From the IMG/VR virus record IMGVR_UViG_3300007734_000678, positions 1 to 39,989 of that record: DNA of 39,989 nucleotides; one strand, 5' to 3'. Source of the stretch: a virus. A program made the position numbers and the translations under genes. This document shows positions 13,578 to 39,989 of the stretch, in pieces (positions within the stretch are counted from its first letter, which is position 1; every line of letters begins with the position of its first letter). The notes below the pieces were generated by a model. That model made no database searches and was not told where the DNA came from. It saw only the letters and a program-made list of their open reading frames with translations.

Positions 13578-13605
13578 ACCCCGCCCTCAAAAGCGGGGTT
13601 TTTTT
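13578..13605 (+). terminator. Intrinsic terminator of the + strand operon
   Basis: A 7-bp stem ACCCCGC/GCGGGGT (13578-13584 and 13593-13599) with an 8-base loop, followed by a run of seven T (13599-13605). It ends transcripts from the early block. Read on the - strand it lacks a T run, so it should not stop late transcription. The stop codon of the giant late gene (13605-13607) touches the T run. Confidence 0.9.
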
Positions 13606-16600
13606 CAGTCTGCTATTTTATTGAGGTAAGGACGCAAGCCCTTCTCAATGTACACACCGTTAAGCATCTCAGCCGACCGCTTGGCGTGTTTCTCTAAGGA
13701 ACTAATAAGTTGGTCTGGTTTAATTTCAAAGCCTGGGAACCTTTTGTTATGCTCATCAACAAGTTTTAGTGCGTCGTCAAACCCTTCTGAGTCATTAGAA
13801 TCTTGAGCCAAATTAATCAGCGCATAGGCTCTTTGCTTAGACCGCATCGCTTCGGTTTGAATTTTAACTACAGCATTGTTCTTTTCTTGCTGCGTTGCAA
13901 TAGGTAGAGGTGCAAATCCTAGTGCCTGCATAGCTGCGTCATAAGTGGTAACTTCTCCCAACGGATCGCCACGTAGTGTAGTAGCCGTGCCCTCATCTAC
14001 AAAACGATACGCCTTCATAAAGTTTTTGATTTGTGATGGAGCCATTGTTTCAAGACCACGATAGACTTTACCGTCGTTAATTTGATCAACACCCCGACCA
14101 ATGTTTAGGAACAAGCCACCTACAGGACCCGTAGCAACTTTGAGGGTATCCATAATTACGCCTTCAGCATCGCTTGATTTTGATGCACCTGAGCCAACTC
14201 CAGGCATAAAGCCTATTAACGGCATATCTCTAAATCCAGTACGGGAGGCAATGTTGCCTTGAGTTAAGGCTGATGGGATACCCGACACAATAAACTCAGG
14301 CATGGTCTCACGTAAGCTGGTGGTGAAATCGTAGTATGGGTCGTCGTCATCACCGATAGCGTTCATAATTGTCTCGGCAATCCAGTAGAACGGCATGCCT
14401 GTAACACCTGAAGTCATGGCGGATGCAGCTAATAGACCTGTTAAACGGTTGCGAGCAATCCGCTTCTCTTCAGGAGTAAAGCCCTTTTGCATCATAATCT
14501 GCATGTTGCGGCTATACATATAGATCATCATCTGCATAAACTTCTTAAACATCAGCAATACTTTGGCAGCTGGGTGCTTAAATACACGAGCGGTACCTAC
14601 GTCAGAGTAATCACCTTGAGTCTCTACTACCGTATCGTTTGCGGCTTGCATTGCTTTAGCGTAATCTTTAGAGCGGTTGTACTCTAAACGGAAAGCAGCT
14701 AATGCAGTTACTTCACGGTTAAACCGTTCGGCATTCTGGAACATATAACCCATGATCATGTTGATCTTCTTTAGGGTGCGTTCCATTGGGGTGCTAGACT
14801 TTAGCCCCGTCATAGTTTCAATATCGCCAACTTCGGTAGCAGCTGGGGGTATTACGTTTAAGTCATATAGCTCTTGAATAGCTTTCTTTTCAGTAGCGGT
14901 TAGATTTGGGTTGTTCTTAATACTAAAGATACCCCGCCCAACTTCAGTTTTACCACCAAAGAAATCTCTAGCCGCCTGATACAGTTCAGAATTTACGTTG
15001 TTAATACCGTAAACAGGGTACAGATACGGTGCAGTTACACCAGAAATTTGGAACAGCTGAACTAACGCAGCGGATGGGTTAGCACCCATATACCAAGCAA
15101 AACCTAGATTACCTAGGAAAGTAGCTGCAGGGCTAATCTTAGGCTGGATTGAAGAGTCGTAATGCTTTTCAATCTCGGCAACTACACGGCTTGATACATC
15201 ATCAGGGTCTTGCTTAACCTTATTCTTCATTGCCTCAATAGCGTTGTCCATGTCGATCATGTAACGGGCTCTTGGCAGTTGATGGACCACACGGTCGGCT
15301 AACTCTTCATAGTTCCTAAGGGCATCCCGTTCATAAGTAGGGGCACCTTTACGGTTTTGGAACTGACGCATAAAAGATTCTTCAGGCAAATACATTAAAG
15401 TCATCTGATACAGCTCATCTTTAGCTTTGGGGTTTACCCTATTGCGGTCAAGAACTTTCTCTAGTTCTTTAAAGAAGCCTGCACGGGGGGCACCTTTGGC
15501 TTTAAGTTCTTTAATAGACTCAAAGCTCTTGGTTTCATACCCTTTAGCTTTCATTTCTTTGGCAAACTCTTTAGCCTGAGATAGGGTCTCAAAGGAGAAC
15601 GGCAGGACTTTATCCTCTGCCATCTGCACAGTTACCCAGTTATTACCAAAGAACATCAATGGTGCGTAAGGACCCTTCTCCTTGAACGAGTCAATCTTCT
15701 TCTCAACCATCGCTTTGATTTCGGCTTTATCGGCAGGGTCAGTTACATAGCTTTGAGCACGGGCAATCATTGACTTCTTAATCTCGTCAAGTACAAACTC
15801 GTTGGTATCACGGTATTTCTTGTAAAAAGTTTTAACGTCTGCTGGGAACTTATTGTACATTGCCTGCAAGCGTGCGTGGTCAGCCTTAGCAACAGGGTCT
15901 GTGTAATCTTTGTTTGGTTTGAGCACGTCTACTTCAAGACGGGAACCCTCGTTAATAACCTCGTCTAACTGTTCAAGTAGGGGTTTGCCTTTGTACGCTT
16001 TGCGTACTTTATGAAAGTCATTAAGTGCATTGGCATACTTTTCCCGCAGCATGTTTCTATATCCGCCCATGCGTTGGGTGGACTCATAGTAGTCTTTTAA
16101 CTCAGTTAATCTAGGGTTACTACTATAAATATCACGTAGTTGGTTTACCGCTAAAAACGGCAATGCCCCCGTCTTAATAGCTAAAACGCCATCTTCCTTG
16201 CCCTTAAATACGGGCACGTTTAGCGCTGGGTTATTCTTAATACTATCCAGTATTTTTATAACGTCGGCGGGTACTGGATCCCGCCCATACTTATTTGGTG
16301 TTGCAACTTTCCGAGATATAGAGTCCATGTCCCTCATGGTGCCTTTGGTAATTAGAGGACCTGGAGTACCAGCAATAAGAGTTCCAATATTATCTATTGC
16401 TAAATCAAACACAGTTTGGGAACTATCGGGTAAGCCCAAGGTTTTACGCAACAATTTAGTAAACACTTGGAACATGTTTTTGGTGCCGATAATAAGTTTA
16501 TTAAATATGGTTTGTTGATTAGGTGCTAAAGATTTACGCATATCTGCTATAGATATACTCTTAAGATAATCTTTAAATTCTTTATTAACTATAGCTTCAG

Positions 16601-19600
16601 ATATAAATTCATCTACGTCTGTTAAACCGTAAAATTTTTCTATCGTGGTACCTGGCACGTATCCTGGGGGCGGAGTAGTCATAAAGTATTGATCTACAAA
16701 CTTATACAAATTAATTAAGTTATCTGCAGCGGTTTCCCATTCAGCACCTGTGCTTATATATCTAGGATTTTGAACTCTTGTAACTTGCGATACAGCTAAA
16801 CCATGCACAATCTCATGCAATCCTGTTTCTGGGTGTGCAACATGCTCTCTACCCATAGAAATAAAAGACCTTCGTTTTCCATTTTCAAAGAAGTTGGCGT
16901 AGTAGCTACCACCTTGTTTACCCCGAGTTACATGTATGTTTTGTAATTCGTATTTAGATATGACGGAAGAATTTAAAAGCATACGAGCAACACGACCTAT
17001 TTCGGTATTGCCTTCGTACTTAGATACATCCGCTAACATCTTCTCAGCGTTATATGTATTTTTGTCTGTTTCTTTTACAAGGCTATCGTAAAACCCTTTG
17101 TTGGGTTCAATTCCAGGAGGTGCCAAAGAACGTTTAATCCCAGTCAAATCTAATAAAGCGTTACTAGCTTTATCTCGTAAAGATTTTCTAACATCGGAAG
17201 CAGAACCACGTTCAAAATACATTTCAAGAGTTATTTTGTCTTTATCTTTAATAGCTTTATCTAAATTAGCTTCTAACCGTGTAAGCGGCCTGTTTTCCAT
17301 AAAAGCTTCTTCAAGCTTATATAGTTTCTTTTGAAGCGGTTCAAGTAAATCTTTGTTAAAAAATTCGTTTTGTTTATCACGAACTACATTTTCTCGTGTA
17401 TCACCCGTAAAGCTATCGTAAAGTTTGCGAGACATAAACTCAACAGAGTCCACTACCTTGCCGTTCTCATCAAGAAGTTCGTATCTATTTTCTTTTGGTT
17501 GAATTGTGGGTCTGTTGCCTTTAGGCATCGAAAACTGCACAACTACACCGTATGTACCCTTGAGGTACTCCATAGCTTTACCGAGGACTCGGTCGTCCAT
17601 CATGAACTCGCCAACTTTCTCACGCTGAGATTCACGAGTAGCAGCTTCATCCATCAATGCACGTACGGTTCTTTCAAGACCAAACTTCTCTACTAGGCGA
17701 TCAATAGTGGTGCCATCAGCTAAGTCTTTATAAGTAGATTTACCAATCTCGTTACGCACCTCAAGCACCGCTTTATCAAAACGTTCTGTAGCAAGACGCT
17801 GCAAGCCACGGGTACGTTTAGAAGCAATAGGCTCAGCCACTTTACCTTCAATCTCAGGGGCAGTAAACACCACATAGCGGGTATTCATAGCCATGCCCGA
17901 GCTTACTTCTGTAGGTTTAGTGCTTGGGAACTTAGCTTTAAAGTCAGACGCAATCTCTTTAGCACTAAAGCGTGCTGGGGTAATAACCGCATACTTGTCG
18001 CCGCTACGCAAAATTACATACGTTGGGTCAAGGTCAAACACTTCCCATTTATTAGTTTCGTATATTTTTTTAAGTCTTTTAGTTTGCTTAGATATTTCAG
18101 GAGCAGCTTTGCCTTCTTTTGCAGCTTTCTTTTCAGCTTTTTCAAGCGCTTCAACTTCAGCAACAATCTCTGCGTCAGTTAGCTTCTCGCCTTTTACCTT
18201 GCCAAACACAGAGTCAATACGCTGTTGTAGTTTCGTAGATACGTCACTCTTAGATATAGCACGGAGGAACGGGTAGTTTTTACCAGCATCAATATCTACA
18301 ATGTCTTCAATAACATCTGCCAACGGCTTGGCAGGCATAGATTCGATGCGATTCTCAACCGCTTGCTTAGCAGTTTCTACATCTTTCTTAGCTTGTTCTT
18401 CTTTCTTTTCTGCTTCTGTGCGCTTAGCTTCTTCTTCAGCTTCTGAAGCAGCGGTTTCTTTACGCTTAGTTTCACGAATATCAATATTGGTTATACGTAA
18501 AATTTCGTTTTCGTATAATTCTTTAAACCTATTAAGAGGAATGTCGCTTACAGCTTTAACAAACCCAGGCACGTCTAGTTTGTCATCAATGCCTACATAA
18601 GCTTCTGCAAGTTTACGTATATCTGCTAATGAAGTTATGTTTAATTGTTTCTTAAGTTTGTCTTGAGCTTGGTCTTGATATTGAGAAACGGCAGTAACCG
18701 CAGCTCTAACTTGTATTGAAGGAGTAATTGCTTTAGCTCTGCGCTCTTCTTCTTGGGCACGAGCTACACGAGCATCTTCTGCTTTTTGTTCTCTAATATC
18801 TTTGCGCAACCCAGTTTTTATACCGCCTTCTTCAGTACGCTCTTCTTCTGGGAATGTTTCTAATTCTTCACGCCCTTGTTTAGTCATTACTTTAGTAACT
18901 TGCTCACGAGAAGCAGTTGCTTCTCTTTCTCTTTTTAATCTAGCAGCAAGGCGACTACGTTCGTTTTTACTTAAGTTACGTAAGAACCCCTCTGCTTTAG
19001 CTACGGCACGATTAAGGTCAAGTGCTTGAGGGGTAGTGGCATCAAATTGTAACTGTATCCGACCTGGTCCTTTAACTGCTTGGAACAAAGCCATTAAGCT
19101 GTCGTCATAAGTCTTTGCTTGTTCTGGGGTGTAGGGGTAGATTACTTTGTCGCCTACTGTCTTTGGAGGTTTGTTTATGGGCCCTCTTAGAGGACGTATC
19201 GTATCAATAAGTTGTTGTATGTCATCAGATGTAGTTACTTCTGGAGCAGCGGCAGTTTCTGCTTCAATCTCTTGTTTTTCTATTCTTCTAAACCGACGCT
19301 CTTCTTCTTGCTGAGTAGGGGTTGGAAAGGCTTCTGGTAATACCGCACCTCTACCAGTATCAAACGGCAAGCGTGCTTGTTCTAAAGCTGGGAACAGCCG
19401 TAAATTATTCTGAGCATCTGAGTAGCGAGCACGGGCATCTTCTACTGTTTTATTGGCGGCTTCTTTGTCTGGGTTGATAGCAAGATTAGCTTCGGCTTTC
19501 TTTAGATCATTAGCACGGGCTTGCACTACACGTTCTAATTCGGCACGGATGGCTTCTGCTACGCCCGGATCAGTAAGGTTCTTCCCTGCAACATCTTGCA

Positions 19601-21641
19601 TTGTCTTACTATTGGGAGCTAAACCTAACTCACGAAGCCCTGCCTTACTAAGTCCTTCTTGGGGAACTTCTTGGGTAGGCAAGGTGCCAGCAGGGGCAGG
19701 CTCAAATAACTCACCTTGAATGCCTAACGGTAACTCACCCTGTTCTTGTGGGAACAACTCCATCTGTGCTGATTCATCTGGGGCGGTACCACCCAATGCA
19801 GCGATACGGTTATCAATATCTAAAAGTAAGTCTTGAGCACCAGGGACTTCTGCACCCTGACGGATTATGTAGTTGCGTACTTGCAACAGTTCTGGGATTG
19901 AGAACGGTATAGTCGCAATATCTTGCTTAACTCTAGCGGCGGTAGCCTGCACCACAGTATCAGCATCAGGCACACCAGCAACTGCAGCCCCTGAGGCTAC
20001 ACGAAGTTGGCGTAGATTCTCTTCAAACTGTGCACGTTGACGGGCAAACTCAGCCTCGGCTCCTGTACCACGAATCCCCTGTTGGGTAGTAATGTCGCCA
20101 AATAAGTCAGGCTGTGCTCCAGCAAGGGCTTCACCCCGTGTAATCTGTTCTACAGGAACGCCAAGCTTCTTTAATTGTTTTAGTTGACTCTCACTCTCTT
20201 TACGCTCTTTACCAGCTTGCTTGGCTTCAGCTTCTATCTCATCAGCTGACTTAACCCCTAACTGACGTAGACGCTCAGTTGTCTGAGCAAGTTGTTGCTC
20301 TTTAGTGAGGGGGGTAGGGGGAGGGGTGGGGGTAGGGGGTACAACGGCAGCTGGACCACGAGCCTGTAAGTTAGTAATTAAGCCATCAAGGTATGCGTCA
20401 ATGTCCTCGCCGTTGTAATTTTTAACAACCAAAGTCTCAAACAGGTTGAGGGGTTCACCAGCAATCTGCTTATCAAGCACCTTCTGGATAGTTGTAATGT
20501 CGTTAATTTTCTGACGGTTGCCTGATAAATAGTTATCAAAGGTCTTACGAATTGCTTCAAGCTCAACCGGATCACTAAGGTTCTTACCTAACAACTTGTT
20601 GTAGGCTTCAGCTTTCTTGCCTGGCTTAAGACCTAAAGTAGTAAGGTCGTCCTCGTCAATGAGGTTGATACCACGGTCAAGCTGCTTTTGCCGAATCTCG
20701 GCACGCTGACGTTGTTTCTTTTCTTCTTCGGTAAGTTCTGGGTTAGCAACTTCTTCCGCAATCTTCTCTGCGGCTTCTTGTGGATTCTTAGCTTGTTGGG
20801 CTTTCTGAGTTGCCCGAACTGCCCTGCGTCCTACCGTTAAATCAAGAGCTGCTTGGAATATCGCACCTGCACCAGCGCCGTAAGCGGCACCTTCTCCAAC
20901 ACCTGCAATGAGTTCTTGGTCAGGTTTGTAAACATTTTTAGCAATTAAATTCTGTAAGAAGTTTTGTGCAGCTTCTTGTGCGCCTTCTACACCACCAGTC
21001 AATGCGGCATTACGAACAATCTGTAAGCCTTGGTTCATTACCGAACCAGGCATTAACTTCATAGCACGGGCAAACGCTAACTCAACAGGTAACGCCTCAG
21101 TTAAACCTGTGGCTGCACCAAGAACAGACGCTGTCATACGTTGTGAAGGCAGTGCACCCTCTTCAACAGCCCGTTCAATTTGTTCTCCAGCGCCCATAGC
21201 AGCACCAGTAGAAAGAGGAACACCTCTACCAAACGGTCGTGTAAGAGCAATACCTGCTACAGAACCTAACGCTCTACCTAGTTTAGGTGCAACTTCGTAG
21301 CCTTCTCCAGGTTCAAAAAACTTACCTACAGGACTCTCGGCTACTTTCTGACTTAAACTTTGTATACCTTTAGCAACAGGTTCAGCACCTGGACCAATTC
21401 CGTATGCTTTTGCAAGGTCAGCATAAAAGCCACCAACACCAGTAGCTGCTGACTCTGCTACCCCACCAATACCAGGAACAATCCCTTTAGCTACTTCTTT
21501 AACCTGACCTAATGCGCTAGTTTTAGGCTTGGGGGTTAGAAGACCCATTAACCGATTGTCAATATCAGCGTAAATTTGGGCATCGGACATAGAGTCCGGA
21601 TACGTCAATCTACCCAGTGTTGGGTCTTCAACGATTCTCAT
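13605..21641 (-). CDS. Giant polyvalent virion protein with zincin site (2678 residues)
   Basis: The largest gene, at the 3' end of the late operon. The N-terminal 270 residues are Gly/Ala-rich with hydrophobic stretches, like proteins injected across membranes. Residues 280-1180 hold charged coiled-coil regions and two copies of a segment with GKNL(S/T)DP near 353 and 686. A zinc protease-like site, LHEIVHGL (His1609, Glu1610, His1613), is followed by a candidate third ligand in FISEA (Glu1682). The last 700 residues are helical, with hydrophobic segments around LLAASAMTSGV. This combination fits phage 'large polyvalent proteins' (LPD/PLxRFG type), which travel in the virion and act early in the new host. 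No N4-like RNA polymerase motif was recognised. Base composition varies strongly along the gene. Confidence 0.85.
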   Translation of the reverse strand: MRIVEDPTLGRLTYPDSMSDAQIYADIDNRLMGLLTPKPKTSALGQVKEVAKGIVPGIGGVAESAATGVGGFYADLAKAYGIGPGAEPVAKGIQSLSQKVAESPVGKFFEPGEGYEVAPKLGRALGSVAGIALTRPFGRGVPLSTGAAMGAGEQIERAVEEGALPSQRMTASVLGAATGLTEALPVELAFARAMKLMPGSVMNQGLQIVRNAALTGGVEGAQEAAQNFLQNLIAKNVYKPDQELIAGVGEGAAYGAGAGAIFQAALDLTVGRRAVRATQKAQQAKNPQEAAEKIAEEVANPELTEEEKKQRQRAEIRQKQLDRGINLIDEDDLTTLGLKPGKKAEAYNKLLGKNLSDPVELEAIRKTFDNYLSGNRQKINDITTIQKVLDKQIAGEPLNLFETLVVKNYNGEDIDAYLDGLITNLQARGPAAVVPPTPTPPPTPLTKEQQLAQTTERLRQLGVKSADEIEAEAKQAGKERKESESQLKQLKKLGVPVEQITRGEALAGAQPDLFGDITTQQGIRGTGAEAEFARQRAQFEENLRQLRVASGAAVAGVPDADTVVQATAARVKQDIATIPFSIPELLQVRNYIIRQGAEVPGAQDLLLDIDNRIAALGGTAPDESAQMELFPQEQGELPLGIQGELFEPAPAGTLPTQEVPQEGLSKAGLRELGLAPNSKTMQDVAGKNLTDPGVAEAIRAELERVVQARANDLKKAEANLAINPDKEAANKTVEDARARYSDAQNNLRLFPALEQARLPFDTGRGAVLPEAFPTPTQQEEERRFRRIEKQEIEAETAAAPEVTTSDDIQQLIDTIRPLRGPINKPPKTVGDKVIYPYTPEQAKTYDDSLMALFQAVKGPGRIQLQFDATTPQALDLNRAVAKAEGFLRNLSKNERSRLAARLKREREATASREQVTKVMTKQGREELETFPEEERTEEGGIKTGLRKDIREQKAEDARVARAQEEERRAKAITPSIQVRAAVTAVSQYQDQAQDKLKKQLNITSLADIRKLAEAYVGIDDKLDVPGFVKAVSDIPLNRFKELYENEILRITNIDIRETKRKETAASEAEEEAKRTEAEKKEEQAKKDVETAKQAVENRIESMPAKPLADVIEDIVDIDAGKNYPFLRAISKSDVSTKLQQRIDSVFGKVKGEKLTDAEIVAEVEALEKAEKKAAKEGKAAPEISKQTKRLKKIYETNKWEVFDLDPTYVILRSGDKYAVITPARFSAKEIASDFKAKFPSTKPTEVSSGMAMNTRYVVFTAPEIEGKVAEPIASKRTRGLQRLATERFDKAVLEVRNEIGKSTYKDLADGTTIDRLVEKFGLERTVRALMDEAATRESQREKVGEFMMDDRVLGKAMEYLKGTYGVVVQFSMPKGNRPTIQPKENRYELLDENGKVVDSVEFMSRKLYDSFTGDTRENVVRDKQNEFFNKDLLEPLQKKLYKLEEAFMENRPLTRLEANLDKAIKDKDKITLEMYFERGSASDVRKSLRDKASNALLDLTGIKRSLAPPGIEPNKGFYDSLVKETDKNTYNAEKMLADVSKYEGNTEIGRVARMLLNSSVISKYELQNIHVTRGKQGGSYYANFFENGKRRSFISMGREHVAHPETGLHEIVHGLAVSQVTRVQNPRYISTGAEWETAADNLINLYKFVDQYFMTTPPPGYVPGTTIEKFYGLTDVDEFISEAIVNKEFKDYLKSISIADMRKSLAPNQQTIFNKLIIGTKNMFQVFTKLLRKTLGLPDSSQTVFDLAIDNIGTLIAGTPGPLITKGTMRDMDSISRKVATPNKYGRDPVPADVIKILDSIKNNPALNVPVFKGKEDGVLAIKTGALPFLAVNQLRDIYSSNPRLTELKDYYESTQRMGGYRNMLREKYANALNDFHKVRKAYKGKPLLEQLDEVINEGSRLEVDVLKPNKDYTDPVAKADHARLQAMYNKFPADVKTFYKKYRDTNEFVLDEIKKSMIARAQSYVTDPADKAEIKAMVEKKIDSFKEKGPYAPLMFFGNNWVTVQMAEDKVLPFSFETLSQAKEFAKEMKAKGYETKSFESIKELKAKGAPRAGFFKELEKVLDRNRVNPKAKDELYQMTLMYLPEESFMRQFQNRKGAPTYERDALRNYEELADRVVHQLPRARYMIDMDNAIEAMKNKVKQDPDDVSSRVVAEIEKHYDSSIQPKISPAATFLGNLGFAWYMGANPSAALVQLFQISGVTAPYLYPVYGINNVNSELYQAARDFFGGKTEVGRGIFSIKNNPNLTATEKKAIQELYDLNVIPPAATEVGDIETMTGLKSSTPMERTLKKINMIMGYMFQNAERFNREVTALAAFRLEYNRSKDYAKAMQAANDTVVETQGDYSDVGTARVFKHPAAKVLLMFKKFMQMMIYMYSRNMQIMMQKGFTPEEKRIARNRLTGLLAASAMTSGVTGMPFYWIAETIMNAIGDDDDPYYDFTTSLRETMPEFIVSGIPSALTQGNIASRTGFRDMPLIGFMPGVGSGASKSSDAEGVIMDTLKVATGPVGGLFLNIGRGVDQINDGKVYRGLETMAPSQIKNFMKAYRFVDEGTATTLRGDPLGEVTTYDAAMQALGFAPLPIATQQEKNNAVVKIQTEAMRSKQRAYALINLAQDSNDSEGFDDALKLVDEHNKRFPGFEIKPDQLISSLEKHAKRSAEMLNGVYIEKGLRPYLNKIAD

Positions 21642-23822: not shown

Positions 23823-24902
23823 TTAAGCAGCACTAAATGCCTTGGATAAGGCAAGGGCTGGAATACCATAACCAAGAACCTGCTGAGCCACATTAGGCTG
23901 AGCCTGATAACTAGATGAAGTTGTATCTGCTTTAACAGGTAAGCCACGCAACATAGCGTTATAAAACTCAAGCTGACGATATGGGAACTCACGTTGGGCC
24001 AAGAAGTCTTGGTAAGCCATATCAAGAGATTTCTGACGTTGGCTTTGCTCTGAACCTGCTACAGATTGTTGGGCTTGTAATCTAGAAAGATCAGTAGCCT
24101 GTATATCTTTACCTAACTGTCCAAGTTGACCAGCACCTGTAAGAGCGGTTTGTAGACCACGTAACCCCACATCAGCACCAAACTGACGGGATTGTTCGGC
24201 GGCTTTTTGAGCCTCCATTGTTTGACCAATGTTAAGTTGTTGCGCTGCCATACGGCGAGCTTGATCACGTTCAAACTGGGCTTGAGCATTTTCAAACGAA
24301 GACTGTAGACCTTTAACTTGTATATCGGATAATTGAGTTCCTAAAGCTTTTTCTCTTTCAGTTTGACCCAAAAGTTGACGAGCACCACCATAAGTTCCTT
24401 GGCGAGCAGCGCCTAAGTTAGTAGCCTGTTGAATCTTCATTGCATCAAGAGCAGCCTGACGCTTGGCAATATCAGTTACACCCTGTTGATAAGGGGACAT
24501 ATACTGTTGCATTTGGTCCATGCCAAACATGTCTGAAGTAGCACGCTCGGGAGTAAACGCAGTGGGTCCATACTGAGTTCCTAGGGCGTTAAGCGTTGCG
24601 GCTCCAGTTGCTTGAGAAGCTCCTGTTAATTCACCAGGACGCTGTAAACCATAAGTTTGCTGGAATAGTTGCTGTTGCTGAGGGCTATAACCTTCAATAC
24701 GTTGCCCAGTGTAGGGTATATAACCTTCTTGAGAAAGAGCTTCGGCACGTTCCATGCCTCGTTCAAAATACGGTTGGGCATACTCGGGTAAGTTACTTGT
24801 ATTAGTAGTGGATGTTTGTGGACCACCACCCCCGCCTCCGCCACCAGAATCCATAGCGTTACCCAAAGGTAACAGCTTACGTTTCATTCCTAGTAGATTC
24901 AT
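23823..24902 (-). CDS. Gln/Ala-rich internal virion protein (359 residues)
   Basis: A 359-residue protein with a glycine run at residues 19-27, an N-terminal NLPEYAQPYFERGMERAEAL segment, and a long Ala/Gln-rich helical body (QQATNLGAARQGTYGGARQ, QAQFERDQARRMAAQQLNI). A hydrophobic tail (GYGIPALALSKAFSAA) ends it. The LPEY...PY opening and QG(T/A)YGG(A/S)R phrase are ones I associate with phage internal structural proteins near the tail end of the structural module. Its ATG overlaps the acetyltransferase stop by ATGA. It is probably part of the ejected internal core; this is inferred from composition and place. Confidence 0.7.
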   Translation of the reverse strand: MNLLGMKRKLLPLGNAMDSGGGGGGGGPQTSTTNTSNLPEYAQPYFERGMERAEALSQEGYIPYTGQRIEGYSPQQQQLFQQTYGLQRPGELTGASQATGAATLNALGTQYGPTAFTPERATSDMFGMDQMQQYMSPYQQGVTDIAKRQAALDAMKIQQATNLGAARQGTYGGARQLLGQTEREKALGTQLSDIQVKGLQSSFENAQAQFERDQARRMAAQQLNIGQTMEAQKAAEQSRQFGADVGLRGLQTALTGAGQLGQLGKDIQATDLSRLQAQQSVAGSEQSQRQKSLDMAYQDFLAQREFPYRQLEFYNAMLRGLPVKADTTSSSYQAQPNVAQQVLGYGIPALALSKAFSAA

Positions 24903-25336
24903 ACCATAGCCTCTTCTTCTTTTTTCATCCAGCGCATTGCTTCACTTTGTAGGATACCGTAAATCAACATGTCTTTGGTACCGTATCCTTGCCTAATAAT
25001 TCCTTCACACTTAAAACCTAAACTTTCTAGCATTCGTCTAGCTTTGGCGTTGTCAGGCTGCGTTCTTGCGGTTACTCTTACGCAACCTAGATTATTAAAT
25101 ACATAATCTGCAATCTCGCCAATAACACGCTTGTTCAACCAATACTTAGAACTTCCGTCACTAGCACCGCCAAAATAGATGTTAATCCCGTCGTAATCAA
25201 ACAGAATCACCCCACCTAATAACTTCTTTTCATTACCAATACCAATGGTGTAATACCATTTAGGCTTCCCGTTTTTAACAGGCATACGCTCTAAAATCCA
25301 GTCCGAGAAATCACATCCGTGAATTACTTGTAACAT
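24899..25336 (-). CDS. GNAT-family acetyltransferase
   Basis: A 145-residue GNAT-fold N-acetyltransferase. The acetyl-CoA region is degenerate, but motif B is clear: NAKARRMLESLGFKCEGIIR near residues 101-120, preceded by beta strands IGIGNEKKLLGGVILF and CVRVTARTQPDN. Acetyltransferases sit in the structural module of several short-tailed phages (Bcep22/BPP-1 type), where they may acetylate a virion protein or an injected target. Here it is coupled by ATGA to the Gln-rich internal protein downstream and lies 2 bases after the 449-residue virion protein, so a neighbour could be its substrate. Confidence 0.82.
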   Translation of the reverse strand: MLQVIHGCDFSDWILERMPVKNGKPKWYYTIGIGNEKKLLGGVILFDYDGINIYFGGASDGSSKYWLNKRVIGEIADYVFNNLGCVRVTARTQPDNAKARRMLESLGFKCEGIIRQGYGTKDMLIYGILQSEAMRWMKKEEEAMV

Positions 25337-29625: not shown

Positions 29626-30102
29626 CTAAGATAAAAATAACGCCCGTTCATCGTTTCTACGAGTGACCAAGCCTTTTAATACTTTACCCCCAGCCAGCGT
29701 ATATTTCAAGAACTCTTCTGCCGCTTCTTCCATTTCGCCCCGAATAACCTTCTGACGGAGGGTGCTGCGCTGTAGTGTTCCCAGACCAACATTAAAGCTA
29801 AAAGATACAAGAGCATCGAATTGACCTTGAGTGAGCTTGACAGGACAGAAGCGTTCAACACCTCGCTCAAAGCGATTAAGATCGTCTCTAAGAATGTCAT
29901 CTACTTCCTCCATCGAAAAGGTACGGTCATCTTTGTATTCCAGTGGGGTACTATCTCGCTCATCTATTTTTAAAGCACCTTGGCGTGGATAGAGCACATG
30001 CCCGACACCAATCGTCCACAATTTAGCGGGACAGCGGTATGGACGCTGGCGGACGCCCTCATGGTGTTTAATCATTTTGATGGCTTTATCAGATACCTTC
30101 AT
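29626..30102 (-). CDS. Endolysin, GH24 lysozyme
   Basis: A 158-residue T4/P22-type lysozyme that cleaves peptidoglycan. The catalytic pattern E-8aa-(D/C)-5aa-T is present as Glu15 (HHEGVRQRPYRC), Cys24 and Thr30 (WTIGVGH). Downstream are QFDALVSFSFNVGLGTLQRST and VLKGLVTRRNDERALF, standard for the family. There is no signal peptide or SAR helix, so export needs a holin. Its first 14 bases overlap the end of the GIY-YIG gene, so its ribosome binding site lies inside that gene and is weak. It is the muralytic member of the lysis cassette at 29.6-31.4 kb. Confidence 0.95.
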   Translation of the reverse strand: MKVSDKAIKMIKHHEGVRQRPYRCPAKLWTIGVGHVLYPRQGALKIDERDSTPLEYKDDRTFSMEEVDDILRDDLNRFERGVERFCPVKLTQGQFDALVSFSFNVGLGTLQRSTLRQKVIRGEMEEAAEEFLKYTLAGGKVLKGLVTRRNDERALFLS

Positions 30103-30649
30103 AAGACCACTTAAATTTTAATATTTTGCACCTTTTTTTAGCTGCAACCTCGCTAATACCATAGTGTTTTCCAGCGCTGGCAAACCCATAAAACTGACCA
30201 TCTGGAGTTGTTACTATATATCTTGCTCGATTTTTAGATATTTTTTGTACTGTTTGTTCAGTATGGAGTTTTTGTTCCATACCCTTCATGGTGTTTGATA
30301 TTTTCTGTTTATGCTCTTCAGTTAGCGGCTTTCCTTTATTAGGGTGGGATTTACCAGACCCAACGCCAAACGCTTCATTTTTAAGGTTATACAAACTTGT
30401 TCCATAAAAACACTCTAAGAATTTTTGTTCTAAATCACCAGCATCCTGTTCTGTATCACATATTTTTAAAACTTTAAAATCAAAACTATCTGCACCGTAT
30501 TTTTTCCAAGCACTCATTAAGTGCCTGTTTGGGTGATATTTGCCATTAAGCATAGCCTTATGCTGGGTAAACCTATTTTCTACATTGCATGAACTACCAA
30601 TATAGGCTTTCCTATTATGCAAATTAACGATAGTGTAAAGACCAATCAT
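30089..30649 (-). CDS. GIY-YIG homing-type endonuclease with NUMOD domains
   Basis: A 186-residue free-standing endonuclease. GLYTI (residues 3-7) and AYIGSS (15-20) form the GIY-YIG core, Arg26 fits the conserved arginine, and a DLEQKFLE segment supplies the likely catalytic Glu. NUMOD3-like DNA-binding repeats follow (SHPNKGKPLTEEHKQKIS), and a C-terminal NUMOD1/HTH-like segment has ASAGKHYGISEVAAKKRCK. Such genes spread by cutting cognate sites lacking the gene. It is inserted between holin and endolysin, but is linked by ATGA upstream and by a 14-base overlap downstream, so lysis gene translation still flows through it. Its middle is notably AT-rich (15 of 60 bases are G or C at 30421-30480), consistent with acquisition. 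Confidence 0.9.
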   Translation of the reverse strand: MIGLYTIVNLHNRKAYIGSSCNVENRFTQHKAMLNGKYHPNRHLMSAWKKYGADSFDFKVLKICDTEQDAGDLEQKFLECFYGTSLYNLKNEAFGVGSGKSHPNKGKPLTEEHKQKISNTMKGMEQKLHTEQTVQKISKNRARYIVTTPDGQFYGFASAGKHYGISEVAAKKRCKILKFKWSYEGI

Positions 30650-35493: not shown

Positions 35494-35784
35494 CTATTCG
35501 TTCAATAAAAAAGTTAGCTCAGGGTGACCAGCTTCCCGCAATCGGTTAGCAATGGTCGTGCGGTCTGAGCGCACCGCTTCTTTTAGGTAAAACACTAAAA
35601 CACTTTGTATGTTCTCTCTAAATGCTTCTGCCTGATCACGAATGGCAGGGTGTGACTTAGAGCCAACATAAATAATCTTGTCGATAGCACGTTCTGCAAT
35701 TTCTTCTGGGGTAAATCCTCTACCCTGTGAGGTTTTCACAATAACATTGCCACCCATAAAGCCTTCTACTGTATCGAAATTCAT
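35494..35784 (-). CDS. Conserved-looking phage protein, 96 residues
   Basis: A soluble helical protein with GGNVIVKTSQGRGFTPEEIAERAIDKIIYVG at the start, then SHPAIRDQAEAFRENI and VLVFYLKEAVRSDRTTIANRLREAGH. The F-T-P-E-E-x-A-E-R-A-x-D-K-I phrase is one I recall from structural modules of short-tailed phages. No enzyme residues are apparent. It is coupled by ATGA to the adaptor gene upstream, which suggests a role in head-tail assembly. Confidence 0.65.
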   Translation of the reverse strand: MNFDTVEGFMGGNVIVKTSQGRGFTPEEIAERAIDKIIYVGSKSHPAIRDQAEAFRENIQSVLVFYLKEAVRSDRTTIANRLREAGHPELTFLLNE

Positions 35785-36470
35785 CGTACTGGATACCTTG
35801 CTTGTAAAGTTCTATACATATCTTGACGGTTCTTGCCTTCACCAAGTTGCAATAACAAGGTCATACCCTCGTCATAACGCTTCTGGTAACTAGCAATGAC
35901 ATCCGCCTCCCCCTTCATAAATACATAAGCTTCCAACAGCGAACCATATAACAACACTTGGTCAAAGTTATTTCCAAGCCAAGACTGACCATTTGCAGAG
36001 TCCACAATAGATTGTGGGTAGTAGAAATAGTGCAATTCACTGTTGTAATCAGCGTCTGGCGTAGGTCCTAAAATAAACGTTACGTCATTAAAAATAGCAT
36101 AGTACTCTGGTGTACCCGTAGTATCTGGGTCTGGATAGCACGAACGAATAAACTCTACGTCCTTATTAAGTAAATACGTCTGTGCATTCGTCACAGGATC
36201 AATGACCGACAACGAAAATGTTGCTTTCCAATCCGTCGGCACATTCAGATACTTATTACCCGTAGTGCAATTACCCGTCACGTTCTTACGAAATACAGGC
36301 AACTGAACCGAGTTATAAATCCTCTGCTCTGCTTGACGAATAAACGTATTAATCTGTTCTGTACTTGTAAAGGTAACAGTGCCCGTCCCGGCAGTATCAG
36401 TCCAAGTAGTAGAGGGGAAGTCGTTCTCAACATACCCCTTAATCGTCTCAAATAGAGTAGAGTAATTCAT
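35781..36470 (-). CDS. Head-tail adaptor, SU10/T7 gp11-like
   Basis: A 229-residue protein. The N terminus (TLFETIKGYVENDFP) and EQINTFIRQAEQRIYNSVQLP helix, the beta middle with YLNVPTDWKATFSLSV, and the C-terminal helix VLLYGSLLEAYVFMKGEADVI follow the pattern of phage adaptor proteins that dock under the portal. These helical-bundle adaptors recruit the nozzle and fibres. The C terminus ends TLQARYPVR. Gene order (two adaptor-like proteins, then tail proteins) supports this. Family naming is from memory of motifs. Confidence 0.7.
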   Translation of the reverse strand: MNYSTLFETIKGYVENDFPSTTWTDTAGTGTVTFTSTEQINTFIRQAEQRIYNSVQLPVFRKNVTGNCTTGNKYLNVPTDWKATFSLSVIDPVTNAQTYLLNKDVEFIRSCYPDPDTTGTPEYYAIFNDVTFILGPTPDADYNSELHYFYYPQSIVDSANGQSWLGNNFDQVLLYGSLLEAYVFMKGEADVIASYQKRYDEGMTLLLQLGEGKNRQDMYRTLQARYPVR

Positions 36471-36476
36471 TAGGGT

Positions 36477-36677
36477 TTACCCCATCTTTGTACTGTGACC
36501 ACGACCCTTAGTCTGTGCTTTACCGCCACGAGTCATTTGGGTTTGGGTGTTAGGTACATTGTTAGGATACCCAGAGTCTTCTTTGTTTAGAGGAACTGTG
36601 TAAGCCTTGGGTTGCGTGTACTTCCCAATAGGATCAGCTGTTTCAGCTGGGAAATACGAAAATGTATCGTTATTCAT
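36477..36677 (-). CDS. Tiny virion-module protein with basic GGKAQTKGRG tail
   Basis: A 66-residue protein. The first 45 residues are polar and Pro/Tyr/Asn-rich, probably unstructured; the last 18 are basic and Gly-rich (RGGKAQTKGRGHSTKMG). The tail resembles the GKTxG tails of two small genes further upstream in the operon (39152-39804). No fold or enzyme is visible. It is 6 bases from the adaptor gene and 1 base from the next small gene. Confidence 0.55.
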   Translation of the reverse strand: MNNDTFSYFPAETADPIGKYTQPKAYTVPLNKEDSGYPNNVPNTQTQMTRGGKAQTKGRGHSTKMG

Positions 36678-36678
36678 A

Positions 36679-36876
36679 TTAACGGCCCCTTCCGGCAGAT
36701 TTTTTGTAAGTAAAGGATGAAACCCGCTGGTTCATAACCTTTGCCATACCACGCCCGTATTTTTTCATATCTTCGTTGGTTTTACCACCTTTACGCATCT
36801 TTTTTACGTCTGGGTCTGGGTGGGCACCTGCGCCTTTAGCCATATGTTTTTTCAGTGCTTCTTTAGTTGTTGCCAT
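36679..36876 (-). CDS. Tiny basic protein
   Basis: A 65-residue protein with about one third Lys/Arg. Sequence features are KALKKHM-like helix at the start, then MRKGGKTNEDMKKYGRGMAK and VMNQR, ending in SAGRGR. The R-K-G-G-K-T and Y-G-R-G-M-A phrases recur in small phage proteins of this sort. It is probably nucleic-acid binding or capsid-internal; evidence is composition only. A GGAG ribosome site precedes it. Confidence 0.6.
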   Translation of the reverse strand: MATTKEALKKHMAKGAGAHPDPDVKKMRKGGKTNEDMKKYGRGMAKVMNQRVSSFTYKKSAGRGR

Positions 36877-36885
36877 TTTTAACTC

Positions 36886-37314
36886 CTAAGTTGTTGTTAC
36901 AGTTACCGTACCCACCGCACCTGCCATAGTCAACGTGCTTGGTGTTAACGGGTTATCAATACCTCTTGGACCCCCTACAGGATTCCAACCCCACTGAATC
37001 ACTCGACTACCCACAGTTGGGAAACCAAGTGAATTTACATTAGTACTTGGAATGTTGGAAATCTGCAATCCCGAAGTACCTGCTTCGTAATACCCTATAT
37101 CTGGTCTAGGATCCCGTACAGCCTGTGGATCATTAACTGGATACAAACCAAGCGATAACTGCGGTTGATCGGGCTCCCAACATTCTTTACATACCTTAAT
37201 ATTAACGTTTTTAGTCTTAATAATTAGGGTTTTTAGCTCTTTTAATTTAAAGCGAAATCCACACCTATCGCACTGCGATATCGCTATACGACCCGATGTA
37301 AACTTGGTGGTCAC
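36886..37314 (-). CDS. Zinc-ribbon structural-module protein
   Basis: A 142-residue protein starting with GTG at 37314, which overlaps the adaptor stop by one base (TAGTG). An N-terminal zinc ribbon is formed by CDRC (15, 18) and CKEC (42, 45) followed by WEPDQPQ. The rest is Gly/Pro/Thr-rich and beta-like, ending in TMAGAVGTVTVTTT. Proteins with this CxxC...CxxCWEPDQPQ layout appear in structural modules of related phages as I recall. The likely role is a virion or assembly component; no activity is shown. Confidence 0.65.
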   Translation of the reverse strand: MTTKFTSGRIAISQCDRCGFRFKLKELKTLIIKTKNVNIKVCKECWEPDQPQLSLGLYPVNDPQAVRDPRPDIGYYEAGTSGLQISNIPSTNVNSLGFPTVGSRVIQWGWNPVGGPRGIDNPLTPSTLTMAGAVGTVTVTTT

Positions 37315-38246
37315 TAGTACCCCCCGCTACCTATATACATTTCACGAGGAACAAAGCGTTGGGAAGCCTTCTCACGGTCTTCACCTGCGGCAATGGTCCA
37401 CTGCTCTTCATAGGCTAATTTAAGCATCTCTGTGCGGTTCATAGCATCAGGGATCTTTAAGGACAGGTGGTATGCCAATCCTGCAACCATACATGGAAGA
37501 AAACGAAATGGGATGTCGGGGGTGTATGTGCCGCCGTCTCCCGTATTCTGCACCCTACGTAGCCTCCAGTACACAAAAGTATATGGGGTAGAACTGTCTG
37601 GGGTAGGCCAAACATAGATAGCAGGTAGGTTAACTACCGACACAGCTGCTCCTGCAGTGTGCGCAGTTGCCGTTGTATTTGACTGCCCACGAACGCAATT
37701 CTGTAGGTCGTTACCACTAATATTAGTGTAGCCAATGATCTCCGCACCGATCTGTACAAAGCCAGAAGTACCAAATCCATCAGCAGAACTTAGGGTAATT
37801 GTGGTGGCAGAAGAGTTAATTGTTGTACTTAGTGTGGCAGCAGTCAGGTTAGTTTGACCTGACTGTCTATTAATCCAGACTTGAATTGGCAAGCCTGTAG
37901 TTGTTTTATTAGGTATTGCTGCGTAGGTAGAAACGCTAATACGGCTGATATTAATATCAATTTGATTAGTTGTATTGTCATTTCTACGAATTACTTGATC
38001 CAGCAGATCAATAGTATCGACTGGCAATGGGTAAATTGGGTTGTTGTAGGTTAAATCAATCTGACCTTCTTCAATAGTCCAAAGATTGATACCACGATTA
38101 GCCCACTCAATAGCCAAAAGATTAAGACTACGACGGGCGGTACGCAAGTCATAGCCAGTACGAAGCTCGGAACCACAGCGTTCAAACGCTTCTTCCACGA
38201 TCTCACGTATCTGCAGGTCAAAATTTGATTCGCCGCTTGTGCTCAT
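37314..38246 (-). CDS. Head-tail connector/adaptor-like protein (310 residues)
   Basis: The N terminus is helical: LQIREIVEEAFERCG and RTGYDLRTARRSLNLLAIEWANRGINLWTIE, a pattern seen in phage connector proteins. A beta domain follows (NNPIYPLPVDTIDLLDQVI), then an Ig-like insertion about residues 130-205 with TTINSSATTITLSSADGFG and GYTNISGNDLQNCVRG, then a C-terminal FRFLPCMVAGLAYHLSLKIPD helix and a closing PREMYIGSGGY. It sits upstream of the second adaptor. It probably seals or joins the head to the tail. It overlaps the upstream gene by ATGA. Confidence 0.72.
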   Translation of the reverse strand: MSTSGESNFDLQIREIVEEAFERCGSELRTGYDLRTARRSLNLLAIEWANRGINLWTIEEGQIDLTYNNPIYPLPVDTIDLLDQVIRRNDNTTNQIDINISRISVSTYAAIPNKTTTGLPIQVWINRQSGQTNLTAATLSTTINSSATTITLSSADGFGTSGFVQIGAEIIGYTNISGNDLQNCVRGQSNTTATAHTAGAAVSVVNLPAIYVWPTPDSSTPYTFVYWRLRRVQNTGDGGTYTPDIPFRFLPCMVAGLAYHLSLKIPDAMNRTEMLKLAYEEQWTIAAGEDREKASQRFVPREMYIGSGGY

Positions 38247-38593
38247 ATCACTTTCCTGTAGGGCTTAACTTTCTTTTTAATCGTTTTGGGCTGGGAGACA
38301 AATTGTTTTCCAGCAGCTTTTCCTGCTCTCTTAGCTCTTGTTGTAGCTGCATATTCAGCAGGAGACAGCGCTTTGATTGCTCGCTCTGGTAAATATCTTT
38401 CTCCCGTGTCGCTTGAACGCTTCCCAGACTTAGTTGTCCACTTTTGAGCGGTCCAAGCTTTAAGAGAACGCTGACTTTTTGCAAGACCGCCCCCAGCTAA
38501 TTTTTTCTTACGTCCAGCGCAATGAGCCCTCTCCGAAAACCCTTTTGGGCTCTCGCAGTTGACTGATTTTTTGCGTTTGTCGGACCATTTCAT
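38243..38593 (-). CDS. Basic protein, DUF5872-like
   Basis: A 116-residue Lys/Arg-rich protein. The N-terminal part has CESPKGFSERAHCAGRKKK, and the centre has SLKAWTAQKWTTKSGKRS then GERYLPERAIKALSPAEYAATT, which follows the DUF5872 pattern (W-T-x-x-K-W-x-T-x-S-G-K, and Y-L-P-x-x-A). DUF5872 proteins occur in phages and large DNA viruses, without a known role. Positive charge suggests binding to packaged DNA. It is coupled by ATGA overlaps on both sides. Confidence 0.72.
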   Translation of the reverse strand: MKWSDKRKKSVNCESPKGFSERAHCAGRKKKLAGGGLAKSQRSLKAWTAQKWTTKSGKRSSDTGERYLPERAIKALSPAEYAATTRAKRAGKAAGKQFVSQPKTIKKKVKPYRKVI

Positions 38594-38859
38594 TTTTTTA
38601 ACTTAGACAAAGTCTGCGCTAATCTTGCACGTTGACCCATCTTGCCAGGCTTTTTAGCAGCTGCGGCAAGCTTTTTAACAGGGATCTTTTCGCCTTTTTT
38701 AACGCCTAAAGATTTACGTAGAGCACCGGGTTTCTTAATAGCAGCTTGAATAAATTTAGTGGAGCCACCCTTTTTAGCGTAACCCATTTTGTTACGCACG
38801 TCTTCGGGCAAGCTAGTTAAACCCTTTTGAGTCTTTGGATCTGGTTCTTTAAGTGCCAT
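38590..38859 (-). CDS. Tiny basic phage protein (ALRKSLGVKKGEKIP type)
   Basis: An 89-residue protein, strongly basic. The core KKPGALRKSLGVKKGEKIP followed by KKLAAAAKKPGKMGQRARLA is a phrase I recall from many small phage proteins encoded among structural genes. The helices alternate with KKPG turns. It may bind DNA in the capsid; no function is established. Its start overlaps the stop of the gene upstream (TAATG). Confidence 0.7.
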   Translation of the reverse strand: MALKEPDPKTQKGLTSLPEDVRNKMGYAKKGGSTKFIQAAIKKPGALRKSLGVKKGEKIPVKKLAAAAKKPGKMGQRARLAQTLSKLKK

Positions 38860-39155
38860 TATTTATACCCCCCACCTTTTTCTTTGTAACGTTTAGCTAG
38901 AAGCTGCGCTTTCCTAGCTGACCACTGACCCGCCGCAGTACCTTGCACAGCTGACGCTTTAATACTATCAAATAAAGCTTTACGCATACCAGGCTTCGTA
39001 TAGTTACCAGCTTGGTTAACCTTTGAAACCTTGCCACCTTCTGCATATAACGCAACCGGTTCATCCCCATCTCGTTTAACAGTTTTACGGGGCATTGATT
39101 TTGCATTAGGCAGTTTCTTGGGGTTAATAATCCCCATACCACGGCTAGTTCTCAT
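38859..39155 (-). CDS. Tiny basic protein with AEGG motif and GQWSARKAQLLA tail
   Basis: A 98-residue protein. It has a basic N terminus, an LYAEGGKVSKV motif near residues 36-46, and a C-terminal domain NQAGNYTKPGMRKALFDSIK then GQWSARKAQLLAKRYKEKGG. The GNYTKPxxRxxLF...GQWSARKAQLLA pattern recurs in phage structural modules and I recall it from other large DNA viruses, with unknown function. The AEGG motif is shared with two larger virion proteins of this phage. It overlaps its upstream neighbour by ATGA. Confidence 0.72.
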   Translation of the reverse strand: MRTSRGMGIINPKKLPNAKSMPRKTVKRDGDEPVALYAEGGKVSKVNQAGNYTKPGMRKALFDSIKASAVQGTAAGQWSARKAQLLAKRYKEKGGGYK

Positions 39156-39589
39156 ACCATCCGCCCTCTAGTCTTACCTCGTTGAGCAATACCATCTGCT
39201 CTTTTAGAAGCAGAAGGCGCTTTTACCTTACCACCCTTACGAAACTCTGGCATTTTTTTAATACCCATACTGCTACTGCCAGCAGGATCTGTCGAATAAT
39301 AAATGGCACGCCCACTACCCGCTTCTTTTCGCCCAAGTTCTTTTGCTTTATCAGCCCGAACTTCATCACCAATGGATCTAACTATTGCTTTAGATTCATC
39401 TATTTTCATTTTCCTAAGCAACTCCTGAGCTCTTTGCTCACGAAGTTTAGTAGCAGCATCCTCTAGCTTGGCATCAAACACAGATGGTCCAGTTTTAGCT
39501 GGACTCTGTTTCTTAGCCTTAAGGTCTTCAGCACTGCCAAACCCTAAGTCAAGCTGATCAAGAGGATTAGTGGGTCTAACCTTCGACAT
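39152..39589 (-). CDS. Small protein with KRADGIAQRGKTRG C-terminal motif
   Basis: A 145-residue protein. The first 80 residues are acidic/basic helical (FDAKLEDAATKLREQRAQELL...IVRSIGDEVRADKAKEL), and a linker leads to a Gly-rich GRAIYYSTDPAGSSS, then FRKGGKVKAPS and the terminal motif SASKRADGIAQRGKTRGRMV. The same motif ends the neighbouring gene. The protein may be processed or docked by this tail. It starts right at the end of the 71-residue gene. Confidence 0.68.
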   Translation of the reverse strand: MSKVRPTNPLDQLDLGFGSAEDLKAKKQSPAKTGPSVFDAKLEDAATKLREQRAQELLRKMKIDESKAIVRSIGDEVRADKAKELGRKEAGSGRAIYYSTDPAGSSSMGIKKMPEFRKGGKVKAPSASKRADGIAQRGKTRGRMV

Positions 39590-39804
39590 TACTTACAAGC
39601 CTTACCGCCCATGCGCATTTTAATCATGGTGCCTTTAGTTTTACCTTTAGCGGCAATACCATCAGCACGCTTGGAGGCAGAACCACCAGCAGCCATTTTC
39701 TTCATGCCGGCTTCTTTCATTTCATGTTTAATCATGGACTTGGGTGCACCTTTTTTCTTCATGAACCCAATTTCCTTTTTAACCATCATTTTTGATTCTT
39801 TCAT
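39589..39804 (-). CDS. Tiny basic protein with KRADGIAAKGKTKG motif
   Basis: A 71-residue, Lys/Met-rich protein. The N-terminal half is a basic amphipathic helix (MMVKKEIGFMKKKGAPKSM, IKHEMKEAGMKKM); it then has AAGG and the SASKRADGIAAKGKTKGTMI motif, followed by KMRMGGKACK. It could bind nucleic acid. The ATG overlaps the stop of the partial gene upstream (ATGA at 39801-39804). Confidence 0.68.
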   Translation of the reverse strand: MKESKMMVKKEIGFMKKKGAPKSMIKHEMKEAGMKKMAAGGSASKRADGIAAKGKTKGTMIKMRMGGKACK

Positions 39805-39989
39805 GTTGCTAACCCTTTCTGAATAAGTTGGTCAATTTTTGCTTCAAGTTTGTTAAAGCGTTGGTCAATGTGTGCAGTAATTTTGTCAACTTCTGCTTTA
39901 GTAACGTTATCACGAGCTACCTCCAATTTAGTATTAATTAGCATCTGCTCAAGGTCTTTTAGCTTTGTGTTCTTTTCACGAGCAATAAA
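39801..39989 (-). CDS. Coiled-coil protein, C-terminal part (5' end outside window)
   Basis: The - strand frame is open from the right edge to the TGA at 39801-39803, giving 62 visible codons. The product is a continuous charged coiled coil (KLKDLEQMLINTKLEVARD, KITAHIDQRFNKLEAKIDQL) ending QKGLAT. The gene start lies beyond the window. It overlaps the next gene by ATGA, the usual spacing in this operon. The function is unknown; it could be a scaffolding or assembly helper. Confidence 0.7.
   Translation of the reverse strand, partial: FIAREKNTKLKDLEQMLINTKLEVARDNVTKAEVDKITAHIDQRFNKLEAKIDQLIQKGLAT

What the first reader, a model, noticed from the sequence alone, without database searches (positions are those of the whole stretch)
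39152..39804. Two adjacent mini proteins share a KRADGIAxxGKTxG motif
The 71- and 145-residue proteins are otherwise different but both carry SASKRADGIA-x2-GKT-x-G-x-M near or at the end. The DNA differs at many synonymous positions (for example different Ser, Lys and Arg codons), so the motif is kept at the protein level rather than being a fresh copy. The 66-residue protein (36477-36677) ends in a looser version, GGKAQTKGRG. A common partner, such as a prohead protease, the portal or packaged DNA, could read this tail. I do not know a described function for it.
Basis: partly seen in the sequence, partly recalled or inferred. Interest (0 to 1): 0.62.

Follow-up and report, generated by a model that had tools for sequence, protein, structure and literature searches.

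The report
Shared end-tag on variable phage proteins
A lineage of aquatic bacteriophages keeps one conserved 17-20-residue tail on a cluster of otherwise unrelated, fast-changing small proteins encoded between the capsid and neck genes, most likely a docking signal that loads them into the virus particle; I found no earlier description of this tail.

Summary
The 145-aa protein ends, and the 71-aa protein nearly ends, in SASKRADGIA-x2-GKT-x-G. In the loci fetched here, 578 distinct proteins carry the motif: within 5 residues of the C-terminus in 397, and 6-20 residues away in 156 (the 71-aa type). R, D, G, G and T are invariant in 355 strict tags. With the tag removed, the bodies form 174-267 families depending on the cut-off. 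The genes sit in one place, between the major capsid gene and the first neck adaptor; 29 of 31 loci chosen only by capsid similarity have the motif. Tags stay 79% identical where bodies have drifted to 32%. Bodies are basic and turn over even between close relatives.

Best explanation (inferred): a docking tag that recruits an exchangeable set of proteins to the head. It would work like the T4 capsid-targeting sequence, but it is C-terminal and not shown to belong to that family. Two N-terminal modules of tagged proteins recur in recorded virion structural proteins of jumbo phages and in a crassvirus protein at the position of a proven cargo protein. No partner and no virion proteomics are in hand. 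The 66-aa protein belongs to another family.

The parts
39589..39804 (-). 71-aa tagged gene (type B): two short predicted helices, then the tag, then a GTMIKM-x2-GGK-x-C ending
   Evidence: ORF; 100% to 60% identical relatives in 80 listed IMG/VR loci; AF2 model of low confidence, helices 2-17 and 22-31
39622..39681 (-). Tag of the 71-aa protein, SASKRADGIAAKGKTKGTMI (residues 42-61)
39152..39589 (-). 145-aa tagged gene (type A): conserved N-terminal block, one predicted helix, variable linker, C-terminal tag
   Evidence: ORF; nine-member family A3; AF2 helix 37-87, mean pLDDT 63
39155..39214 (-). Tag of the 145-aa protein, SASKRADGIAQRGKTRGRMV at the very C-terminus (residues 126-145)
39533..39568 (-). 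Second conserved block of the 145-aa family, NPLDQLDLGFGS (residues 8-19)
   Evidence: invariant in alignment A3
39801..39989 (-). Upstream neighbour, small IDQRFNKLE gene, cut by the end of the record; in relatives it lies next to or inside the tagged cluster
38859..39155 (-). Downstream small basic gene, phrog_17747 (unknown function)
   Evidence: E 3e-27
38590..38859 (-). Small basic gene whose homologue in L151 carries a tag, i.e. an untagged counterpart
   Evidence: fam 54
38243..38593 (-). Small basic gene, phrog_14910 (unknown function)
   Evidence: E 5e-34
37314..38246 (-). First neck adaptor (Pfam SU10_adaptor): the downstream border of the tagged interval
   Evidence: E 1e-6; synteny
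35781..36470 (-). Second neck adaptor (Pfam SU10_adaptor)
   Evidence: E 8e-23
36477..36677 (-).

Best explanation
The KRADGIA-x2-GKT-x-G tail is a modular docking (targeting) tag. A fixed component of the assembling phage head (shell, scaffold, portal or cement protein; which one is unknown) binds it through the invariant R-x-D-G and G-K-T residues and so recruits a changing set of small, basic, largely unfolded proteins into or onto the virion. The bodies can be swapped freely as long as each keeps the tag. They probably act as internal or ejected proteins delivered with the DNA, or as head accessories. Shown here: the tag, its position, its modularity, purifying selection on it, its confinement to one head-gene interval, and modules shared with virion proteins of other phages. 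Inferred: the binding, the loading into the virion and any ejection.
For: Strict C-terminal placement and invariant residues. Many body families, homologues with and without the tag, and the tag better conserved than the body in 178 of 194 sampled pairs. Synonymous sites of tags within a genome near saturation, 0.565 of fourfold sites differ against 0.699 expected for independent sequence. Genes confined to the interval between capsid gene and first adaptor, all on one strand; 29 of 31 loci picked only by capsid similarity carry the motif and the other two have a shortened form. Bodies basic (98% net positive against 59% of control ORFs) and replaced quickly between related genomes. N-terminal module of type-B proteins is the N-terminus of recorded virion structural proteins in CBB and relatives. 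N-terminal module of 12 type-A body families occurs in crassvirus cr107_1 gp38 (E 8e-10), at the gene position of the crAss001 cargo protein gp45 (PMC10172136). T4 shows that a 10-residue peptide can suffice for such loading (PMC9026906).
Against: No partner identified and no proteomics of a tagged phage available. Several phages with the same capsid family have no tag in this interval, so the capsid alone does not require it. The motif sometimes lies internally or near the N-terminus, so a free C-terminus is not essential. The links to virion proteins go through other modules of the carriers, not through the tag, and the crassvirus equivalence rests on gene order (one search finds no overall similarity to gp45). 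Location among head genes does not prove presence in the virion.
Confidence: 0.5

Rival explanations
1. The tag is a nucleic-acid-binding tail: the proteins are basic DNA condensers that enter the head by sticking to the genome, with no dedicated protein partner.
For: The tag has a mean net charge of +4.7 and the bodies are basic.
Against: An invariant Asp, invariant Gly and Thr, and the fixed distance to the C-terminus ask for specific recognition; charge alone would tolerate far more change.
Confidence: 0.15
2. The tagged proteins are not virion parts but late intracellular factors that act on the host or on assembly (for example with the phage GroES-like protein), the tag binding a host or assembly protein.
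For: No proteomics contradicts it; a GroES-like gene lies in the same head-gene block.
Against: The genes are locked between capsid and adaptor genes, and other modules of the carriers occur in virion proteins elsewhere. GroES-like genes are also present in tag-less relatives.
Confidence: 0.15
3. The tag is a processing site: a protease cuts near SAS/KRADG during head maturation and releases the bodies.
For: T4 and SPN3US internal proteins carry terminal propeptides that are cut during maturation (PMC9026906, PMC7411985).
Against: No protease was recognised among the head-region proteins that I scanned, not an exhaustive scan. Conservation runs through the last 17 residues rather than clustering at one bond.
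Confidence: 0.08
4. The tag is a recombination or gene-conversion patch that spreads at DNA level and has no function of its own as a peptide.
For: Tags within one genome are slightly more alike than between genomes (0.789 against 0.748, 0 of 500 shuffles reach it), so some exchange or shared descent exists.
Against: Synonymous sites are near saturation while residues are fixed, and residues are invariant across hundreds of bodies; this needs selection on the peptide.
Confidence: 0.04

Closest known systems
T4 capsid targeting sequence (CTS) of internal proteins IPI, IPII, IPIII and Alt (PMC9026906)
   Same: A short constant peptide at one end of several unrelated, basic, variable proteins encoded by one phage; T4 authors suggest it lets such phages incorporate various proteins in their capsids.
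   Different: CTS is N-terminal, 10-19 residues, and removed by the gp21 protease; this tag is mostly C-terminal with a different sequence, and neither loading nor cleavage is shown.
Planktothrix phage Pag-Yong1 protein UMO75986.1
   Same: Gene in the interval after the capsid gene; ends GRDGCAKRGRTKGRFI, a tag homologue in an annotated phage record.
   Different: Diverged tag (Arg for Lys in GKT); a single copy seen in the stretch read.
Crassvirus cargo protein C1 (crAss001 gp45) and the protein at that position in cr107_1 (gp38)
   Same: cr107_1 gp38 contains the F-x2-AFAEAR...F-x-WNGK-x-Y-x-T module found at the N-terminus of many tagged proteins.
   Different: No KRADG tag in gp38; much larger proteins; gp45 itself does not show that module, and gp38 and gp45 are not similar over their length.
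phiKZ 165.1 and N-termini of virion structural proteins of CBB, GAP32 and PBECO4 (phrog_16759, phrog_22033, phrog_25121)
   Same: Same N-terminal module as one large class of type-B tagged proteins.
   Different: phiKZ 165.1 (58 aa) has no tag; tags in the jumbo-phage proteins were not seen or not examined.
Encapsulin cargo-loading peptides (from own knowledge)
   Same: Short C-terminal peptide that loads unrelated proteins into a shell of the HK97 capsid fold.
   Different: Unrelated sequence, recalled not tested; bacterial compartments rather than phage virions.

Membership tests
T4-type capsid targeting sequence | N-terminal position of the targeting peptide | tested here: not met
   397 of 578 proteins carry the motif within 5 residues of the C-terminus, only 7 near the N-terminus
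T4-type capsid targeting sequence | Constant peptide on several otherwise unrelated proteins of one phage | tested here: met
   two to five tagged genes per cluster with unrelated bodies
T4-type capsid targeting sequence | Removal by the prohead protease | not testable with these tools
   needs virion mass spectrometry; no protease recognised among the head proteins scanned
T4-type capsid targeting sequence | Protein is packaged in the head | not testable with these tools
   no proteomics of a tagged phage in the library searched
T4-type capsid targeting sequence | Sequence homology to the T4 peptide | not tested
   no T4 sequence was compared
RGTGAATKG C-terminal family (the 66-aa protein) | Common ancestry with the KRADG tag | tested here: inconclusive
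   profile alignment P = 0.013 against column shuffles, chosen after the fact; end-anchored ungapped comparison P = 0.37
Known domain families (Pfam, PHROGs, NCBIfam) | A model that matches the tag | tested here: not met
   no family covers the tag in 100 representatives

The most novel reading that the evidence does not exclude
A C-terminal loading code: these phages use one peptide tag to pack an exchangeable arsenal of small proteins into the head and inject them into the host, so that any gene that gains the tag becomes virion cargo.
Probability: 0.3. Interest if true: 0.85.

Novelty: new variant of a known kind. Interest (0 to 1): 0.62.

Why it matters
If right, one short motif picks out hundreds of otherwise unrecognisable virion-associated proteins in a widespread group of uncultured aquatic phages, and offers a peptide for loading proteins into a phage head. 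It would be a C-terminal counterpart of the T4 capsid-targeting sequence and would make the contents of these heads directly testable. Even without the mechanism, a fixed peptide kept on hundreds of unrelated proteins is a strong lead to an unknown binding partner in one capsid lineage.

Tried and rejected
Database families for the tag: none in Pfam, PHROGs or NCBIfam. Literature for the motif string: one unrelated text match; DUF names of neighbours: one paper that mentions DUF5872 in an algal virus. tblastn of both proteins and of a 31-aa tag against annotated phages found no credible relative; the Pag-Yong1 homologue was found only by reading genes beside related capsid genes, so those negative searches are not proof of absence. 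The 66-aa protein as a third carrier: not supported. Host from bacterial genomes: four loci in the scan of 84,980 genomes, all metagenome bins; three hold the same phage head module and one is a chimera, so no host is assigned. An acyltransferase-tag fusion (L160) was rejected as an assembly chimera, a GC-rich cellular ORF joined to phage sequence near the contig end. AF2 models of both window proteins have low confidence (pLDDT 61-63), so no fold search was run. My degenerate DNA pattern was miswritten and is not used. No solved structure matches the tag or this capsid protein by sequence.

Full report
OBSERVATION. The window is an IMG/VR virus record of 39,989 bases. Two adjacent - strand genes encode proteins of 71 and 145 residues that share SASKRADGIA-x2-GKT-x-G-x-M and nothing else detectable. 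Of 20 tag residues 15 are identical, and 8 of the 14 identical residues other than Met use different codons. The record ends one gene upstream of them. A near-identical relative (L003; 100% and 96% identical to the two proteins) has another tagged 142-aa gene beyond that point, so the window holds only part of the cluster.

EXTENT. Gene calls on the fetched loci give 578 distinct motif-bearing proteins: 397 have the motif within 5 residues of the C-terminus (type A, like the 145-aa protein), 156 at 6-20 residues (type B, like the 71-aa protein), 7 near the N-terminus (MAFTRSADGIAKKGKTVGKN and similar) and 18 internal; a few of the last two groups are chance matches. In the first set of loci 306 of 363 end exactly four residues after the matched GKT(R/K), and reversed ORFs give no match. 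Among 355 strict type-A tags R, D, G, G and T are invariant and the K of GKT is 98%.

MODULARITY. With the tag removed, 565 bodies fall into 174 families at a looser and 267 at a stricter single-linkage cut-off, most of them singletons; the number depends on the cut-off because the bodies are low in complexity. In 194 sampled pairs of related proteins the tag is better conserved than the body in 178; where bodies average 32% identity, tags average 79%. Homologues with and without the tag exist, for example the DUF6321 protein and the basic protein homologous to window 38590-38859. Fourfold sites of tags within one genome differ at 0.565 against 0.699 expected for independent sequence, and tag residues are slightly more alike within than between genomes (0.789 against 0.748). 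The tags are therefore old and under purifying selection, with some exchange or shared ancestry within lineages.

CONTEXT. In the larger genomes the order is terminase, portal, a GroES-like gene, a scaffold-like gene, two small genes, the major capsid protein, cement-like genes, a DUF6321 gene, an IDQRF gene, two to five tagged genes, small basic genes, adaptor 1, a 130-aa gene, small genes and adaptor 2, with some variation ('scaffold' and 'cement' are my labels from position and from annotation of relatives). All 794 tagged gene calls, some from overlapping fetches, lie on the strand of their cluster, and nearly all lie between the capsid gene and adaptor 1. Chosen by the capsid protein alone, 29 of 31 loci with at least 5.5 kb downstream carry the motif, 26 of them in the C-terminal form; the other two have a shortened form such as GIESKGKTKCKM. 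Phages with more distant members of the same capsid family (HTVC023P, HTVC027P, CRP-902, 023Pt, QDWS535, Caulobacter RW) show none among the genes read there, while Planktothrix phage Pag-Yong1 has a protein ending GRDGCAKRGRTKGRFI. Bacterial genomes contain the tag only in stray phage contigs or a chimera.

CARRIER PROTEINS. Type-A bodies are basic (net positive in 98% against 59% of control ORFs) and poor in W, F, Y, H and C (5% against 13%); 2 of 355 have a strongly hydrophobic stretch. Of 100 representatives almost none has a known domain. They are exchanged rapidly: a body has a homologue in the other genome in 51% of comparisons at 95% or more adaptor identity, 27% at 80-95% and 4% at 60-80%; type B in the same loci gives 93, 70 and 54%. 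Loci cut at contig ends lower all these figures. AF2 models show one central helix in the 145-aa protein and two short helices in the 71-aa protein, the rest at low confidence.

LINKS TO VIRION PROTEINS. Two N-terminal modules of tagged proteins occur elsewhere. The first, MP-x2-SKKQHNFMAAVA...VGVPQSVGK, is phiKZ 165.1, a small separate gene upstream of the capsid gene in Stenotrophomonas phage BUCT555, and the N-terminus of proteins recorded as virion structural proteins in CBB, GAP32 and PBECO4. The second, F-x2-AFAEAR...F-x-WNGK-x-Y-x-T, occurs in 12 tagged body families and in crassvirus cr107_1 gp38: E 9e-3 in the search of annotated phages, and 8e-10 when the crassvirus stretch is searched against the proteins gathered here, where 34 of 35 matches are tagged and the last ends in the shortened form. 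That gene lies between a large gene in the stabilization-gene position and the next large genes, as gp45 does in crAss001. gp45 was found in capsid and tail by cryo-EM and mass spectrometry (PMC10172136). cr107_1 gp38 and crAss001 gp45 are not similar over their length, so the equivalence rests on gene order and on crAss002 gp30, which matches gp38 and shares one module with gp45.

MECHANISM AND VERDICT. The simplest reading is a docking tag for a fixed head component that recruits an exchangeable set of proteins, in the manner of the T4 capsid-targeting sequence (PMC9026906). It is not filed as a member of that family, because the position differs and neither loading nor processing is shown. 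Shown: the tag, its conservation, modularity and location. Inferred: binding, loading and possible ejection. The partner is unknown. Rivals (DNA-binding tail, intracellular factor, processing site, recombination patch) are weighed in their own section; virion proteomics of one tagged phage would separate most of them.

Noticed in passing
OL906435.1, OQ594354.1, PP438419.1: Three phage records of identical length (65,014 bp) and identical capsid match are assigned to different cyanobacterial hosts (Planktothrix agardhii, Synechococcus, Planktothricoides), so the host of this phage is uncertain.
   Followed up: no
L160:6584-8425: A metagenome-assembled Patulibacter contig joins an acyltransferase ORF to a phage tag near its end; most likely an assembly chimera.
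   Followed up: yes
L374:3988-6516, L370:3001-4674, L369:3951-6329: Crassvirus proteins at the C1 cargo position look like patchworks: crAss001 gp45 and crAss002 gp30 share one module (68%, E 3e-28) and little else, and cr107_1 gp38 carries a different module there.
   Followed up: partly
G010:C1:35319-35534 (L237) and similar proteins in L125, L127, L188, L233 and L088: A small separate protein carries the motif near its N-terminus (MAFTRSADGIAKKGKTVGKN); the window's counterpart by position (36679-36876) lacks it.
   Followed up: partly
window 30089-30649 (-): Homing-endonuclease-like gene among structural genes (phrog_314, E 7e-26).
   Followed up: no
window 24899-25336 (-): Acyltransferase-like gene (phrog_4470, E 5e-24) inside the structural block.
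   Followed up: no
window 13605-21641 (-): 2678-aa protein matching phrog_10089 (DarB-like antirestriction, E 2e-77) over its last third, with a weak match to virion RNA polymerase earlier.
   Followed up: no
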